From the IMG/VR virus record IMGVR_UViG_3300017730_000002, positions 45,287 to 109,286 of that record: 64,000 nucleotides of DNA. One strand, given 5' to 3'. The translations under genes were made by a program, and so were the position numbers. Of the stretch, positions 1 to 17,792 are shown piece after piece (the stretch's first letter is position 1; each line of letters starts with the position of its first letter). The notes below the pieces were generated by a model that was not told the origin of the DNA, searched no databases, and saw only the letters and a program-made list of their open reading frames with translations. The stretch comes from a virus.

Positions 1-1124
1 TATATAGGATTAGTATACTCTCTATATAGAAGATAAGATACATAGTATCCCGCATTTAGATTTGTTTGAATAGATTTAGGAGGGAAAACCTCGGTCATAA
101 GGTGGGCTCTTATGATTACTGTTGACTTAGGTTCGCTACCTTCGTTGTATCAGGGCTTAGATGTTTCGTCTAGGGTTTAATAATGCCTTTGGGTTCAACT
201 TTTCTTGGTTGGGCAAGTGCTTCGCACTTCTTGAGTATTCAAACATTAAATAGGTACAAGTAGGGTGTATTCCCGTAAATTAGTTCTTGCTAAGTTGACA
301 GAGAGTCAAGCCTTTTTTATTTACAAACCTATGACTAGAGAGTCGGTCATAGTATAAATGGAATAGAAATTAGAAATTGTATAGGTTCTAACGTAATTTT
401 AAAAGTTAGTATAGGCATACAACATATGCTTAGAGGTCTGGATGACTGTCTGTCCTTAAATGTGAACTATACTATGCAATATTTTCTTTTCGCGATTTAT
501 TATCATTTCTAATTGATATGCTTCGGCTATTAATTAGTCTTAATCCCAAGTTGTCGGGATTTAAAATCACAGATGTTGAACTGTGATATGAATTCGTTCT
601 AATAGACAAAACACCGTGTAATCAGTACCTTTCTTGTAAGGGGAGCAGTTGCACACAAGGGTGGATAGGACAAAGACCTTACAGGGTTCTAAAACTATCA
701 GTGTTATATGTAAAGAGTACGGTCTGTAAACTGTACGTGGTTGCATATGAAATTAGGGATTTGAGCTACTATCCTAGTAAAACGTAAAATGCTAAGTCTT
801 AACTAAAAACAAAGAACTGGACAATGACGTGAAGTCTAAAGCTTATGGTGTAATTAGAAGTGCCTAATCATAGTTTAGAAATGAACTGTGTTATCCCGCA
901 AGGGGTTGTGAATTTTATGTGCCAGCATAATTGAAGCAACACTTAATTGAGATGTCATTGGCCAATGATATTGATAGAGAGTAGAATGATTACATCTTAT
1001 CCTGTTACTATGCAGTCGATCATAGTATGGCAAAGTTAATGAAGGATTTTTCTATCCGTGTGCTAACCCTTACAAATTGAGGGGTCATTAACATTTTGAA
1101 CCGAGTAGTGCTAGGTTCTTTTTT
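1..1124 (+). ncRNA. Candidate large structured noncoding RNA region
   Basis: No convincing gene is seen in about 1.1 kb, which is exceptional in this compact genome. The stretch is rich in exact hairpins: 95-115 (TCATAAG/CTTATGA), 509-537 (12 bp with one bulge and a cUUCGg tetraloop), 542-561 (AATCCC/GGGATT), 566-587 (ATCACAG/CTGTGAT), 895-904 (CCC-GCAA-GGG, a GNRA loop) and 1006-1027 (TACTATG/CATAGTA). It ends in a terminator-like hairpin with a T tract. UUCG and GNRA loops are hallmarks of folded functional RNA. Phage RNAs of the GOLLD or ROOL type have similar size and style, but membership is not shown. The strand is inferred from the terminal T tract and the downstream genes. More than one RNA may be present, and the 5' end may lie outside the window. 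Confidence 0.55.
1098..1124 (+). terminator. Terminator-like hairpin ending the 5' noncoding region
   Basis: GAACC (1098-1102) pairs with GGTTC (1114-1118), followed directly by six T residues. The A-rich start region of the next gene follows. It may end the upstream structured RNA or act as a processing or attenuation site. Confidence 0.5.
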
Positions 1125-1145
1125 ATTCACTTAAAACATTTTGAA

Positions 1146-1409
1146 ATGGAGACATTTGTATCTTACAAAAACAAAGTAGTTAATAGACGTAATGATGATC
1201 TCGCTGAGAGTAATTTAGTCTATCCTATTGGTAAAGGGTATCATCAAGTAGCGCAACTTGATAAATCCTGGGTATTAAAGTATTTGCGTTTGAAATTAGG
1301 TCGTGGAGTTAAAGATATTCATAACAAGTATGTAGTTCGTATTAAGAATGATATGCTTGTATATAACTGTGACGGCAAGTATTGGTTAATTAAAAAAAAT
1401 AATGACTAA
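1146..1409 (+). CDS. Hypothetical protein, 87 aa
   Basis: Not recognised. A basic, tyrosine-rich small protein with alternating charged and hydrophobic residues suggestive of a compact beta-rich fold. No signal peptide, membrane segment or cysteine motif is seen. The ATG follows a CACTTAAAACATTTT leader typical of genes here and comes 22 bases after a terminator-like hairpin. It overlaps the next gene by 8 bases, so the two are probably translationally coupled. As the first gene after the structured RNA region it may be expressed very early; that is inference. Confidence 0.65.
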   Translation: METFVSYKNKVVNRRNDDLAESNLVYPIGKGYHQVAQLDKSWVLKYLRLKLGRGVKDIHNKYVVRIKNDMLVYNCDGKYWLIKKNND

Positions 1410-1632
1410 AGAAGAAGCATTAGAAAAGACTAGAAAGAAATTCACTAACCTCTTTGATGGAGATATCCTTCCAAGGGTTAGTGTCGGTAAGATTATATCT
1501 TACTATGAATCACTTATTGCAGGTAACAAACCTATAGTTACTGATAGAGATTGTAATATTACAAGAGCATTCAATGAAGCATCGAATTATGATATGATGG
1601 ATGATCTTGATGAATATTATGATGGTATTTAA
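1402..1632 (+). CDS. Hypothetical protein, 76 aa
   Basis: Not recognised. Largely helical and acidic towards the C terminus (ends MMDDLDEYYDGI); no cysteines and no membrane segment. Its start lies inside the end of the preceding gene with an 8-base overlap (ATGACTAA), the coupling seen repeatedly in this genome. It is followed by about 200 noncoding bases with hairpins. Confidence 0.65.
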   Translation: MTKEEALEKTRKKFTNLFDGDILPRVSVGKIISYYESLIAGNKPIVTDRDCNITRAFNEASNYDMMDDLDEYYDGI

Positions 1633-1783
1633 CCTGACACAGCGGGTTAATAGAGGTTGTACGGTCCAAATTTACTCTATAAAATCTTATGGGACCTATG
1701 CTGGTAACAGTTCCAGACACGGAGATGAGATGAAACCTTAGACACTTAATTAATGTCTGTATGGGATTAAGCCGTGAAAGAAT
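1633..1783 (+). ncRNA. Structured intergenic RNA candidate
   Basis: No gene fits here. Short complementary segments are visible: AACC/GGTT just after the stop codon, GGTCC/GGACC around 1656-1696, CTGG/CCAG around 1700-1715, and AGACA/TGTCT at 1740-1757. Read with the terminator at 1784-1817, it could be a small folded RNA or a structured 3' untranslated region. The helices are short and no covariation was available, so this is tentative. Confidence 0.35.
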
Positions 1784-1817
1784 GAGGGTAGACTGTGAAA
1801 AAAACTACCCTCTTTTT
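1784..1817 (+). terminator. Intrinsic terminator-like hairpin
   Basis: GAGGGTAG (1784-1791) pairs perfectly with CTACCCTC (1805-1812) and is followed by TTTTT. The A-rich leader of the next gene begins immediately after, so it may be a terminator, attenuator or processing hairpin. Confidence 0.7.
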
Positions 1818-1843
1818 ATTTATTTACTTAAAAACAAATTATC

Positions 1844-6155: not shown

Positions 6156-6559
6156 AACCAAAGTTAAAAGAATGTGACGGTTGTCAAAAGATGACTGTTA
6201 TATGGAAGAATCATGAGGGTAATAGATACTGTAAATATTGCTGGAGTTGCCACAAAAGCAGTACTAACAAGCCAAAGAAACCAAACAAGTCTGTTATCCC
6301 TCGTGTTTCTGCCAAAAGAAAGAAGAAAGATGCTGAGTATCTTAAGTTAAGAGAAAGATATCTTATTGACAATTCCCTATGTAAAGTTAAAGTTCAAGGA
6401 TGCAGTAGTAATGCTACTGATGTTCATCATACATATGCAGGCAGTAACCGTGATGCTTTTTATTTGGTTCAAAGTACATGGATTCCTGTTTGCAGGAATT
6501 GTCATAACTGGATCCACGAGCATCCAGAAGAAGCAAGAATTATGAATTATTTAAAATGA
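6152..6559 (+). CDS. Zinc-ribbon HNH-type protein, 135 aa
   Basis: Probable metal-binding HNH nuclease or related DNA-binding protein. An N-terminal zinc ribbon uses C8/C11 and C27/C30 (CDGCQ ... YCKYC). A basic linker (KRKKKD) leads to an HNH-like module: cysteine pair in CKVKVQGC, the DVHH motif, and the closing CRNCHNWIHEH. Phage proteins of this type act in recombination (NinG/Rap-like), packaging or homing. Its place in a coupled run just before an SF2 helicase favours a phage DNA-metabolism role over a free-standing homing gene. The motifs are clear; the substrate is unknown. Confidence 0.75.
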   Translation: MKPKLKECDGCQKMTVIWKNHEGNRYCKYCWSCHKSSTNKPKKPNKSVIPRVSAKRKKKDAEYLKLRERYLIDNSLCKVKVQGCSSNATDVHHTYAGSNRDAFYLVQSTWIPVCRNCHNWIHEHPEEARIMNYLK

Positions 6560-6924
6560 AGTATATGACAAGCATCGTATTAAGAACATTAACAAAAAAG
6601 TCAAAATTAGGAGTTTGGAAAATTACTGATACTATACAAAATTTACTTGATAGAAAAGATAAAAGAAATCTTGTACAAGCTTACTTTAAATTGACTACAA
6701 TTAACTATACTGATGATATTCTCGATGAATTAGGAATAACATCTAAATGGAAGATTAAAAAACCAGGAGCAAATAAAGATTTATATTATGAGTTTTTAAA
6801 GGCAAATAACTGGAGTAGTGAAATGACTAGTAAAAAAAGTAGAGGAGGTAGGGCTGATAAACTTAAAGGAAAGAATATTCTTTTATCAAAAAGTTCATTA
6901 CAAAGTAAAAATCACGGAAGATGA
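6556..6924 (+). CDS. Hypothetical basic protein, 122 aa
   Basis: Not recognised. The first ~85 residues look like a small helical domain, possibly helix-turn-helix-like (ILDELGITSKWKI). The C terminus is lysine/serine-rich and disordered. It begins on an ATGA overlap with the HNH gene and ends on another with the next gene. DNA binding is plausible from charge only. Confidence 0.55.
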   Translation: MKYMTSIVLRTLTKKSKLGVWKITDTIQNLLDRKDKRNLVQAYFKLTTINYTDDILDELGITSKWKIKKPGANKDLYYEFLKANNWSSEMTSKKSRGGRADKLKGKNILLSKSSLQSKNHGR

Positions 6925-9776: not shown

Positions 9777-10619
9777 ATGAGTGCGGAAATTAAGCATCAA
9801 AATACTAAAACCCTAGTTACCAAAGACAATAATAATAGTGCAAATTGCATAGCTCCTAACCTAGTATATGGTTGTTTTGGAGGCTGTGTAGATACCTATT
9901 GTTATATGTCCAGGTATAATGGTCATAGAGTATTTGTAAATGAGAATGTAGATGATATATTTAACTCTGTTGTAGAGTGGGAGAAAGGTTTTACCAAGGT
10001 CCCTGATCAGCAGGATCCAATATATACCATGGTAGATGTTGCATGTAATACTGATTTAGTGCTAATGCAGCGTTATTTACCTGAACCATTGATAGATTAT
10101 CTCAAAAGATATGATAATCACCCTACCTTGAATTCAACTATGGCAACTAAGTATCCTAGTTTGTTGAAACTTGACGTCAAAAAGTTCAACAAAAAACCAA
10201 GGGTAAGAGTTAGTCTTATGCCACAAAGGTTTGCAGACGTGTTGGAGCCTAAGATGCAAAAGGTTGCAAGAAGGATTCCTGAGATCAATAGACTTAAAGA
10301 CCTTGGGTGGGAAGTGCACGTTAACTATAGTCCTCTTGTTTTCTACAAGAAATGGAAAGAAGACTACAGTGAGTTGTTTAAGATGGTAAAGGATGCAGCA
10401 GGAGTAAATAAATGTGAGGTAATTGCATTAACTAATCATGCTAATCAAATGGCAAGGTCTTCTGATGCGGCCAGAGAATTAATGAGCCTTAGCTATGAAG
10501 TAAAAAATAGCTCAGGTGTTATGAGGTATCCTTTGAAACATAAAACAAGGTTACTTGAGGAGTTTAAAGAACTATACTCACAGTACTTTGATTTAGACAC
10601 AATAAGGTATATTTTCTAA
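9777..10619 (+). CDS. Radical SAM protein, spore photoproduct lyase-like, 280 aa
   Basis: Resembles the spore photoproduct lyase (SPL) branch of radical SAM enzymes, iron-sulfur proteins that use S-adenosylmethionine to repair thymine dimers. Near the N terminus C33, C37 and C42 in YGCFGGCVDTYCYMSRY form the likely cluster site. Further on, RVRVSLMPQ, the ILEPK-like VLEPKMQK and GWEVHVNYSPLVFYKKW match the SPL pattern. The spacing CX3CX4C departs from the family's CX3CX2C, so chemistry or substrate may differ. As a stand-alone DNA repair gene it would pair with the phage uracil-DNA glycosylase. Family call moderate; function inferred. Confidence 0.65.
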   Translation: MSAEIKHQNTKTLVTKDNNNSANCIAPNLVYGCFGGCVDTYCYMSRYNGHRVFVNENVDDIFNSVVEWEKGFTKVPDQQDPIYTMVDVACNTDLVLMQRYLPEPLIDYLKRYDNHPTLNSTMATKYPSLLKLDVKKFNKKPRVRVSLMPQRFADVLEPKMQKVARRIPEINRLKDLGWEVHVNYSPLVFYKKWKEDYSELFKMVKDAAGVNKCEVIALTNHANQMARSSDAARELMSLSYEVKNSSGVMRYPLKHKTRLLEEFKELYSQYFDLDTIRYIF

Positions 10620-10639
10620 GTTTATTAAGTTTATTAAGT

Positions 10640-10763
10640 TTATTAGTGCTGCTGATGTACACAGTTCTGGATTAGGTCGTGATAAGATATACGTAATGTG
10701 AATCCTAGTAGCTCAAAATACCTGAAATATAGGTGGCGGGGCCTAAAGTTAAAGCACTAATAA
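10640..10763 (+). ncRNA. Structured element closed by an 11-bp stem, upstream of tRNA
   Basis: TTATTAGTGCT (10640-10650) is exactly complementary to AGCACTAATAA (10753-10763), enclosing about 100 gene-free bases. The tRNA begins four bases later. An 11-bp perfect closure over this distance suggests a discrete folded RNA or a tRNA-precursor structure. A TTTATTAAGT repeat (10620-10643) overlaps the 5' arm. Confidence 0.5.
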
Positions 10764-10766
10764 TTT

Positions 10767-10840
10767 GCACCCATAGCTCAGATGGATAGAGCAACTGCCT
10801 TCTAAGCAGTAGGTCTTAGGTTCGACTCCTAATGGGTGTA
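10767..10840 (+). tRNA. tRNA-Arg (anticodon UCU)
   Basis: Complete cloverleaf: acceptor GCACCCA/TGGGTGT with one G-T pair, D stem GCTC/GAGC, anticodon stem ACTGC/GCAGT with loop CTTCTAA giving anticodon TCT, T arm TTAGG-TTCGACT-CCTAA, discriminator A. CCA is not encoded. It reads AGA, which is the dominant arginine codon across these phage genes, so it probably supplements host decoding. Confidence 0.95.
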
Positions 10841-10902
10841 CTAAGGGTGTTACTCCACAACGGCAATGTTATGTTAAGGTCTAGGAAGTGTAGTAGAGGT
10901 GA

Positions 10903-11120
10903 GCTTGAAAACGTAACAGTTACAAGTTGAATTCTCTTGTTCAAGCATGGAGACAGATGAGCAACCCGCGGGGGAAATGGAGGCAAAGTGTATTGACCTA
11001 TTTGGTAATAGAATAGGCATAGAGCCGAATACACAGTATTATACTAACATGGAAGTAAACGTCTATGGAAAAAGATTTGTGAAAGCAACTAGGTGGAGGT
11101 AAGTGCTCTAGTATAATACT
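10903..11120 (+). ncRNA. Multi-stem structured RNA downstream of tRNA
   Basis: Ordered exact stems follow the tRNA. GCTTGAA (10903-10909)/TTCAAGC (10940-10946) encloses smaller GTAA/TTAC and ACAAG/CTTGT hairpins. GTGTATT (10988-10994)/AATACAC (11028-11034) has CCTATT/AATAGG inside. AGTATTATACTA (11035-11046)/TAGTATAATACT (11109-11120), 12 bp, directly abuts the previous stem. No gene fits. An ACCCTTTTTATTAATTTTT leader and a small gene follow. This looks like a compact functional RNA; the family is not recognised. Confidence 0.5.
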
Positions 11121-11139
11121 ACCCTTTTTATTAATTTTT

Positions 11140-16182: not shown

Positions 16183-17184
16183 TTGGAACAATTCAATGGT
16201 GCAAAGCCTTTAAAGGCTATTAGTAAGGTGCGTGCTTATGAGAAGGCCCTTTTAGAAATGAGAGGGAGAATGGACGGTAGAATTAAAAGTCTTGCAACTG
16301 CATGGCCTAAGTTTAATGATGCTACACTAAATGGTTTAGAGTGGAATACTCTAACTGTTGTTGGCGCTAGACCTGGTGTTGGTAAAACTTTATTTATGGA
16401 GCAGCTTGTTACAGAAGTTATTGCTCTTAATAAAGATCAAGACTTTCAAGTTCTACAATTTCAATTTGAGATGCCTGAGAAAACTCTTGGTATGAGAGCG
16501 TTCTCTGCTATAACTCAGAAAGATTATGGTGTCCTTCATAGTAAGTATGAACCTTTAGAAGAAGAGATTTACAATAAATGTAAACAATACACTAGTACAC
16601 TTAATAAAAACAATAGGGTATTCTCTATTTACAGACCGTGTACTGTTAATGAATTCTGCGCAAGTATAGATTATCATTTTAGACAAAATGTAAAAGAAGT
16701 TAATGGACAAAAGGTGTATCCTAAACTTTTAGTAACTGTAGATCACTCAGCTTTATTTAAAAGAGATAAGCATGAGAAAGATAGATTTGAAATGTTATAC
16801 AATCTAGGTGAAGCGCTAACCTTTATGAAAAGAAGTTATCCACTATCATTTGTTATTTTAAGTCAATTAAATAGAAACATTGATGATCCTAAACGTGCTG
16901 TAGAAGGTACATATGGTAATTATGTTCTAGACTCTGACTTATTTGGTGCTGATGCATTATTGCAACATGCTGATATAGTATTAGGTATTAATAAACCTGC
17001 TGCTAGAAAAATTAGATATTATGGTCCAGAAAGAATACAAATAACAGATCCAGAAACCTTGGTGTTTCATTTCTTAAAATGTAGAAATGGAGACACTAGA
17101 ATAAGTTTCTTTAGATTAGATAGAGATACAATAAGAATAGTAGAAATGAACACACCAACACAAAATAATAAAATTCAAATATGA
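16183..17184 (+). CDS. dnaB: DnaB-family replicative helicase, 333 aa
   Basis: Hexameric 5'-3' helicase driving the phage fork. RecA-like core: Walker A GARPGVGKT (residues 61-69), FQFEMPEK after strand 2, Walker B-like LLVTVDHSAL, the SQLNR motif typical of DnaB (H4-like, sensing ATP), and the C-terminal KCRNGDTR arginine-finger region. The N-terminal primase-binding domain of bacterial DnaB is largely missing, as in compact phage versions. The start is a TTG at 16183, one base after the upstream stop; no in-frame ATG exists before residue 26. Confidence 0.92.
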   Translation: MEQFNGAKPLKAISKVRAYEKALLEMRGRMDGRIKSLATAWPKFNDATLNGLEWNTLTVVGARPGVGKTLFMEQLVTEVIALNKDQDFQVLQFQFEMPEKTLGMRAFSAITQKDYGVLHSKYEPLEEEIYNKCKQYTSTLNKNNRVFSIYRPCTVNEFCASIDYHFRQNVKEVNGQKVYPKLLVTVDHSALFKRDKHEKDRFEMLYNLGEALTFMKRSYPLSFVILSQLNRNIDDPKRAVEGTYGNYVLDSDLFGADALLQHADIVLGINKPAARKIRYYGPERIQITDPETLVFHFLKCRNGDTRISFFRLDRDTIRIVEMNTPTQNNKIQI

Positions 17185-17792
17185 GTACAAGACAAGAGAA
17201 CCAAAAAGTTCTTATGGCAACACACTTGCCAACATTTAAGAGGTTGAAGATTGCTGACCCTTATTTTATTGCTAAGTCTGCATGGGCGCCCCCAGGAGAA
17301 GCGCTTAAAATACAGTTCTTTCCTAATGAATTAAAACAAGGAAGAGATATCTATACAGAACTTAGTGATTTTAATGCTGTATCAGAAGATCCAACACATA
17401 CATTGTATAAATTAAAGCATAATCCTTTTTATAAAGAGGAATATCCTTTAGAACAAAAGACTAGTAAGTCAGGTAATGATTATGAAGTTTATGTTGTACC
17501 TATTGAGGAGCTTGTTGCTATTGATAAGAAATCAGGTAAAGAAATACCTTATAATTCATATCAAGATTACTTAAAGAACCCTCCCAAAGAAGAAGTAGAG
17601 ACTAAACCCGCTGATTTTCCAAACTTTACTGAAGAATATCTTGATGTAGGGTTGAAGAAGAAAGAGGAAGATGATCCTAAATATGTTCCTTGGAAAGAAG
17701 ATGAAGAAGAAGTAAAAAACTTTCCAGATTGGTTAAACACTTTGGATAGAATAGCAACTGCATTAGAAAAAATAGAAAAGAAAATAAAATGA
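17181..17792 (+). CDS. Hypothetical replication-module protein, 203 aa
   Basis: Not recognised. The first ~110 residues appear to be a compact domain with beta-prone segments (FIAKSAWAPPGEALKIQFF). The rest is acidic, proline-containing and probably disordered, ending in a short lysine-rich coiled coil. It overlaps dnaB and the ATPase gene by 4 bases each, so it is likely a partner in that operon. Confidence 0.6.
   Translation: MSTRQENQKVLMATHLPTFKRLKIADPYFIAKSAWAPPGEALKIQFFPNELKQGRDIYTELSDFNAVSEDPTHTLYKLKHNPFYKEEYPLEQKTSKSGNDYEVYVVPIEELVAIDKKSGKEIPYNSYQDYLKNPPKEEVETKPADFPNFTEEYLDVGLKKKEEDDPKYVPWKEDEEEVKNFPDWLNTLDRIATALEKIEKKIK

What the first reader, a model, noticed from the sequence alone, without database searches (positions are those of the whole stretch)
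1..1124. Possible large ornate RNA at the left end
About 1.1 kb without a gene carries at least six strong hairpins, including a cUUCGg loop (509-537) and a GNRA loop (895-904), and a terminator-like end. In a genome whose genes otherwise overlap, this much free space must be useful. Large phage RNAs such as GOLLD and ROOL have this appearance.
Basis: partly seen in the sequence, partly recalled or inferred. Interest (0 to 1): 0.75.

Follow-up and report, generated by a model that had tools for sequence, protein, structure and literature searches.

The report
Swappable RNA cassette in crAss-like phage
Just behind a conserved promoter-like stretch, this crAss-like phage carries about 1.1 kb of gene-free, hairpin-rich DNA that its relatives replace with other structured RNAs, including a self-cleaving ribozyme, so it is very likely a slot for exchangeable non-coding RNAs rather than a GOLLD- or ROOL-type RNA.

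Summary
Window 1-1145 is free of genes and carries more perfect hairpins than shuffled sequence (7 against 2.8; 2 of 100 shuffles reach 7). Folding energy is not exceptional compared with this phage's coding DNA. Window position 1 is not a genome end: 45 kb lie upstream and the gene-free stretch starts 346 bases earlier. No Rfam family matches, GOLLD and ROOL included.

A leader (window -163 to +59) is conserved in related crAss-like phages, but what follows it is replaced wholesale, even in a phage whose neighbouring helicase is 93% identical. In relatives the same slot or its near neighbourhood holds real RNAs: a Hatchet ribozyme, a covarying module X1 with a kissing loop, and a covarying module Y found only with a 600-residue protein. 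A further new RNA, Z, lies at window 1629-1818 and also occurs in unrelated phages.

Best reading: an exchangeable early non-coding RNA cassette. The cassette of this phage has no detected relative, so its own structure and function remain untested.

The parts
1..59 (+). 3' end of the conserved promoter-like leader, which begins at about window -163 (L039 1837; G000:C1:45124)
   Evidence: blastn to relatives over window -163..+59 at 69-90% identity; exact shared motifs GGAAATACKTRTGTGTYTTAATCT and TTTATATAGCTAACTTT upstream. That it is a promoter is inferred.
60..1124 (+). RNA cassette of this phage: gene-free, hairpin-rich, without detected relatives
   Evidence: no ORF, no protein-level match, hairpin excess, replaced by other RNAs in relatives
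95..115 (+). hairpin TCATAAG-GTGGGCT-CTTATGA
215..229 (+). hairpin AAGTGC-TTC-GCACTT
295..318 (+). possible intrinsic terminator TTGAC-AGAGA-GTCAA-GCC-TTTTTT; would end a first RNA
   Evidence: read from the sequence; U-run segment repeated at 1118-1130 (D3); not called by the strict scan
328..355 (+). hairpin CTATGAC...GTCATAG, copy 1 of a duplicated 28-nt element
   Evidence: D1, 79% identical to 1001-1028; hairpin
370..391 (+). hairpin TTAGAA...TTCTAA
509..537 (+). long stem with C(UUCG)G loop
542..561 (+). hairpin AATCCC...GGGATT
   Evidence: window 481-600 has folding z -3.7 on both strands
566..587 (+). hairpin ATCACAG...CTGTGAT
895..904 (+). CCC-GCAA-GGG hairpin (GNRA loop)
1001..1028 (+). 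copy 2 of the duplicated hairpin element (TACTATG...CATAGTA)
1098..1124 (+). terminal hairpin GAACC...GGTTC followed by TTTTTT
   Evidence: loop of 11 is outside the limits of the strict scan
1146..1409 (+). first gene after the cassette, 87 aa, no relatives found
   Evidence: no relative in viral contigs; no Pfam or PHROG match
1402..1632 (+). second gene, 76 aa; homologue directly after the different cassette of L003/L004
1629..1818 (+). Z RNA: separate structured RNA with a likely pseudoknot and terminator hairpin, shared with other phages
   Evidence: 213.5 bits with model R1; 9-sequence alignment and structure; second crAss-like and other phage contigs

Best explanation
Window 1-1124 (with about 160 bases upstream) is an exchangeable non-coding RNA cassette. 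Inferred: a conserved promoter-like leader drives transcription rightward, starting near window -30, and the transcript ends at hairpin/U-run sites near 318 and 1124, giving one or two structured RNAs before the early genes. Shown: related crAss-like phages keep the leader but put different RNAs behind it or close to it, namely the X1 kissing-loop module, a Hatchet ribozyme, and the Y module linked to a 600-residue protein. I think it most likely that these RNAs act in trans as early, accessory host-takeover or counter-defence RNAs (for example protein-bound RNPs or decoys). That would explain why they are swapped as cargo while neighbouring genes are kept. The function of this phage's own cassette is inference by position only.
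For: Leader conserved at 69-90% while the following sequence shares nothing detectable, although the helicase of L003 is 93% identical. Hatchet ribozyme, 86.7 bits (gathering 51), in the gene-free stretches of L011 and L013, at the corresponding place in the early arm. X1: 7 members over several cassettes, 100% of cells paired, 3 pairs with changes on both sides including one in the kissing loop, against 36-47% paired when slid. X1 is present in L011 and absent from the same hairpin in L013. Y: 12 pairs with changes on both sides, 24 such cells against 9.7 +/- 2.1 shuffled. The Y unit (P1-AUA-P2-UCCU...P2'-C-P1') occurs 12 times in 107 kb at P600 loci, 0 times in 785 kb of controls, and P600 occurs in exactly the six records with Y. 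Hairpin excess in this phage's cassette.
Against: No homologue of this phage's cassette was found, so no covariation supports its own structure. Folding energy does not separate it from coding DNA. No transcript data. Hairpin excess is modest (2 of 100 shuffles). The terminators are not called by the strict scan. In L011 and L013 a small gene lies between leader and RNA, so 'same slot' is approximate there. The trans-acting role is not tested at all.
Confidence: 0.62

Rival explanations
1. A structured 5' leader acting in cis: the hairpins and U-runs form an attenuator or translation control for the early operon that follows, and no free RNA is meant to act in trans.
For: Lies directly behind a promoter-like leader and before early genes; hairpin/U-run sites at 295-318 and 1098-1124; in relatives X1 or Y sits directly before a gene.
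Against: A cis-element should follow its gene, yet X1 is 96% identical in L017 and L045 in different surroundings. The sizes (about 0.2 to 1.1 kb) and complete replacement are unusual for an attenuator.
Confidence: 0.2
2. One large ornate RNA of the GOLLD/ROOL type, a single folded molecule of about 1.1 kb that assembles with itself.
For: Length about 1.08 kb, gene-free, UUCG and GNRA loops, terminal hairpin.
Against: No Rfam match at E <= 10; no tRNA island nearby; an internal U-run hairpin at 295-318; relatives at this site have short, modular, unrelated RNAs.
Confidence: 0.08
3. Non-functional or non-transcribed spacer, for instance a replication origin or decayed genes.
For: No relatives; AT-rich leader (18-25% G+C); folding energy like coding DNA.
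Against: G+C of the cassette (about 30-43%) is higher than that of the leader; no protein remnants in six frames; no iteron-like direct repeats, only short two-copy families; relatives keep covarying RNAs and a ribozyme here.
Confidence: 0.1

Closest known systems
Hatchet ribozyme (Rfam RF02678)
   Same: Found in the gene-free RNA stretch of relatives L011 (571-708) and L013 (2850-2987), directly after module X1 or its empty hairpin.
   Different: Not present in this phage's cassette.
GOLLD and ROOL large ornate RNAs (PMC12286853)
   Same: Phage-encoded, gene-free, hundreds of bases, many hairpins.
   Different: No match to any Rfam model, no tRNA island nearby, and the locus is modular and replaced between near relatives rather than conserved.
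YrlA / bacterial Y RNAs with the Ro60-like protein Rsr (PMC7790460)
   Same: The Y-module unit of relatives recurs upstream of the P600 homologue of cyanophage S-CRM01, where one copy encloses a tRNA-like module that matches YrlA (RF02553, E 2.7e-6, 35.9 bits against gathering 69).
   Different: The crAss-like Y modules do not match Rfam Y RNA families; P600 has no Pfam or PDB match; this phage has neither Y nor P600.
crAss-like phage early genes (phage crAss001, PMC8375218)
   Same: Early genes form their own transcribed block; [quoted passage not shown]
   Different: No non-coding RNA cassette was found described in the papers read; the literature held here is incomplete.

Membership tests
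GOLLD / ROOL | match to the family covariance model | tested here: not met
   no match at gathering scores in the window nor at E <= 10 in 1-1145
GOLLD / ROOL | often encoded near tRNA islands (PMC12286853) | tested here: not met
   only tRNA in the window is tRNA-Arg at 10767-10841
GOLLD / ROOL | covariation-supported complex secondary structure | tested here: inconclusive
   no homologues of the cassette to align
GOLLD / ROOL | homo-oligomeric RNA cage | not testable with these tools
   needs cryo-EM or native gels
Hatchet ribozyme | match to RF02678 in this phage's cassette | tested here: not met
   met in relatives L011, L013
Module X1 (new, this work) | match to model R3 in this phage | tested here: not met
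   no match above about 5 bits in the cassette with filters off; none in the whole record
Module Y / YrlA-like unit | Y core model R2 or the P1-AUA-P2-UCCU...P2'-C-P1' unit in this phage | tested here: not met
   no significant R2 match in the cassette; no unit in window or L038; P600 absent
Y RNA (for module Y of relatives) | bound by a Ro60/TROVE protein | not testable with these tools
   P600 is linked to Y in 6 of 6 records, but no TROVE match by Pfam or PDB profile and the AlphaFold model is poor (pLDDT 55), its fold search uninformative
Z RNA (new, this work) | match to model R1 at window 1629-1818 | tested here: met
   213.5 bits; this sequence is part of the model, but L002:525-723 was not and scores 211.5

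The most novel reading that the evidence does not exclude
CrAss-like phages keep a dedicated early-promoter slot for exchangeable non-coding RNA cassettes, a counterpart of accessory-gene hot spots made of RNA modules (ribozymes, kissing-loop RNAs, Y-RNA-like RNPs), and the cassette of this phage is one or two unknown RNA families in that slot.
Probability: 0.45. Interest if true: 0.8.

Novelty: new variant of a known kind. Interest (0 to 1): 0.6.

Why it matters
Phage accessory regions are nearly always described through their proteins. A conserved leader with wholesale-swapped RNA behind it would mean that phages also trade non-coding RNAs as cargo, and it gives concrete new families (X1, Y with P600, Z) and a setting for the Hatchet ribozyme, whose biological role is open (own knowledge). 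The Y-P600 pair makes a direct test possible of whether phages carry a divergent Ro/Y RNA particle.

Tried and rejected
Rfam scans of the window and cassette, also at E <= 10: nothing but a tRNA. Homologues of the cassette: blastn against phages, plasmids and 29 related records, a scan with the duplicated hairpin that gave one unrelated contig, genes next to it, and bacterial genomes for the helicase. Folding energy as proof of structure: rejected, since coding controls score alike, and the clearly conserved Z RNA itself has z -0.84. Covariance models of X1 and Y on this phage: no hits. A similarity of CCCGCAAGG to the twister signature was considered from memory and dropped, as Rfam gives no support. 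P600 as a Ro60 protein: only suggestive; Pfam, PDB sequence and fold searches gave nothing, and the fold search rests on a low-confidence model. The first X1 alignment used wrong coordinates for L045 and was replaced.

Full report
WHERE IT IS. The window is bases 45287-109286 of a 109286-base virus record, so the flagged stretch is internal and not a left arm end. The record is a distant crAss-like phage: its large terminase finds crAss-like phages (cr10_1, cr130_1, Bacteroides and Flavobacterium phages) at about 25% identity, and the late arm codes for very long proteins. Late genes run on the - strand and early genes on the + strand; the divergence lies in L038 at about 16400-17680, some 2.3 kb upstream of window position 1. 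The flagged stretch is inside the early arm, after several small + genes.

THE OBSERVATION. The gene-free stretch runs from window -346 to 1145. There is no + strand ORF of 40 aa in 1-1145 and no protein-level similarity in six frames to the related loci. The UUCG and GNRA hairpins are there. With a simple rule (perfect stem of 6 or more, loop 3-12), 7 hairpins are found against 2.84 +/- 1.6 in shuffles, 2 of 100 shuffles reaching 7; ten coding controls show no excess. Folding energy gives no such contrast: whole-cassette z -2.7 (span 60: -4.2), three coding controls -1.9 to -4.7 (the run stopped at its time limit), and sliding windows -0.57 on average against -0.90 for coding DNA. The hairpins are thus real and modestly enriched, but energy proves nothing here.

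THE LEADER IS CONSERVED, THE CARGO IS NOT. Helicase relatives and a motif scan gave phages with the same leader: two exact motifs and blastn identity of 69-90% over window -163 to +59. After the CCCGCATTTAG end of the leader, similarity stops. L003/L004, with a helicase 93% identical to this phage's, have an unrelated stretch of about 300 bases there. L041 and L044 share one cassette at 98%; L009 shares only its 3' 400 bases with them. L017 and L045 share a 138-base module at 96% in otherwise different surroundings. L011 and L013 share nearly everything, but L011 has module X1 inside a hairpin that is closed and empty in L013. In L011 and L013 a small gene lies between leader and RNA.

THE RNAS AT THIS LOCUS IN RELATIVES. 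(a) Hatchet ribozyme, 86.7 bits, in L011 571-708 and L013 2850-2987. X1 of L011 ends at base 570, directly before it. (b) X1: found by model R3 in L045, L017, L011, L059, L060, L023 and L014. A closing helix, two small hairpins and a kissing interaction between their loops (UUGCA with UGCAA) are paired in all cells; three pairs change on both sides, one of them in the kissing loop (L023, UUGUA with UACAA); sliding the partner drops pairing to 36-47%. The alignment was fitted to model R3, but that model holds no kissing-loop pseudoknot. L059, L060, L023 and L014 were not in the model-building set. (c) Y: five members in two diverged groups; 12 of 74 pairs change on both sides and 98.2% of cells are paired.

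Y COMES WITH A PROTEIN. A 600-residue protein (P600) directly follows Y. It occurs in six of 26 records searched, and all six carry Y just upstream, one cut by the contig end. Its homologues in cyanophages S-CRM01 and S-CBWM1 sit in tRNA arrays, and that of phage Phass-1 near a tRNA-Ser. Upstream of the S-CRM01 homologue, and downstream of the Phass-1 one, the same RNA unit recurs: P1-AUA-P2-UCCU...P2'-C-P1', with different P1 and P2 sequences that stay paired. It occurs 12 times in 107 kb around P600 genes, once in 2.1 Mb of shuffles, never in 785 kb of control DNA. The motif was defined on the crAss-like and S-CRM01 sequences, so the counts describe enrichment rather than an independent test; the two Phass-1 copies were found by the scan. 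One S-CRM01 unit encloses a tRNA-like module and matches YrlA, the bacterial Y RNA (E 2.7e-6, below gathering). YrlA partners the Ro60-like protein Rsr (PMC7790460), and crAss001 has a TROVE protein among its early genes (PMC8375218). P600 as a divergent Ro protein is therefore an attractive lead, but every direct test failed or was uninformative.

THE CASSETTE OF THIS PHAGE. It has none of these modules and no relatives anywhere I could search. A hairpin element is duplicated at 328-355 and 1001-1028 and a CTTTTTTATTYAC stretch at 312-324 and 1118-1130. Together with U-run hairpins at 295-318 and 1098-1124 this suggests two RNAs, about 45-318 and 325-1124. This is a reading of the sequence, not a test.

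Z RNA. At 1629-1818, between the second and third gene after the cassette, lies another RNA: 9 sequences from this phage, L003 and seven contigs with other gene content, plus L002 found by the model. Long invariant stretches, a hairpin with an RCACAG loop, a likely pseudoknot (GGUCC with GGGACC; AGUCC with GGGACU in L003) and a helix that is CACGG/CCGUG here and CAGUG/CACUG in L003 and L058. On the automatic alignment only one counted pair changes on both sides and the structure is not distinguished from shuffles in that measure; the helix and pseudoknot changes were read by hand. It is not in Rfam.

INTERPRETATION. Shown: gene-free, hairpin-enriched cassette; conserved leader; wholesale replacement; genuine structured RNAs at the locus in relatives. 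Inferred: that the leader is a promoter, that this cassette is transcribed and structured, that it ends at the U-runs, and that it acts in trans. I put 0.62 on an exchangeable non-coding RNA cassette, and less on any particular function.

Noticed in passing
window 1629-1818: Z RNA, a new conserved RNA with a likely pseudoknot and its own terminator hairpin, shared with phages of other gene content and absent from Rfam.
   Followed up: yes
L011:571-708 and L013:2850-2987: Hatchet ribozyme in the early RNA region of two crAss-like phages; X1 or an empty hairpin directly precedes it.
   Followed up: partly
L009:3931-6120, L013:3402-5539, L044:6600-8786 and relatives: Y RNA module always followed by a 600-residue protein whose homologues in cyanophages lie in tRNA arrays; possible phage Ro/Y RNA particle.
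   Followed up: partly
L067:2020-2480 (Synechococcus phage S-CRM01): Unannotated array of Y-unit hairpins before g174; one encloses a circularly permuted tRNA-like module and matches YrlA below the gathering score.
   Followed up: partly
L069:6323-6452 and 6461-6899 (phage Phass-1): Two tandem Y units directly before an unannotated tmRNA (77.9 bits, gathering 47).
   Followed up: no
window 10600-11135: tRNA-Arg flanked on both sides by gene-free, RNA-like sequence that ends in a U-run; no plausible Rfam match other than the tRNA.
   Followed up: partly
L038:16400-17080 (G000:C1:41686-42366): Several short gene-free elements in a row, each ending in a stretch like TTTCTTTTTTTTTAGTT, between the late and early arms.
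   Followed up: no
L053:8240-8740: Z RNA followed at once by a second RNA-like stretch (GGCTAGTCCAG...) and preceded by a tRNA-like end; the following stretch is seen also in L054, L055, L057, L058.
   Followed up: no
L016:12609-12768 and L037:3121-3230: tRNA matches spanning 160 and 110 bases, so these phage tRNAs may hold insertions or introns.
   Followed up: no
window 1146-1409: 87-aa gene directly after the cassette with no relative found; it may travel with the cassette.
   Followed up: partly
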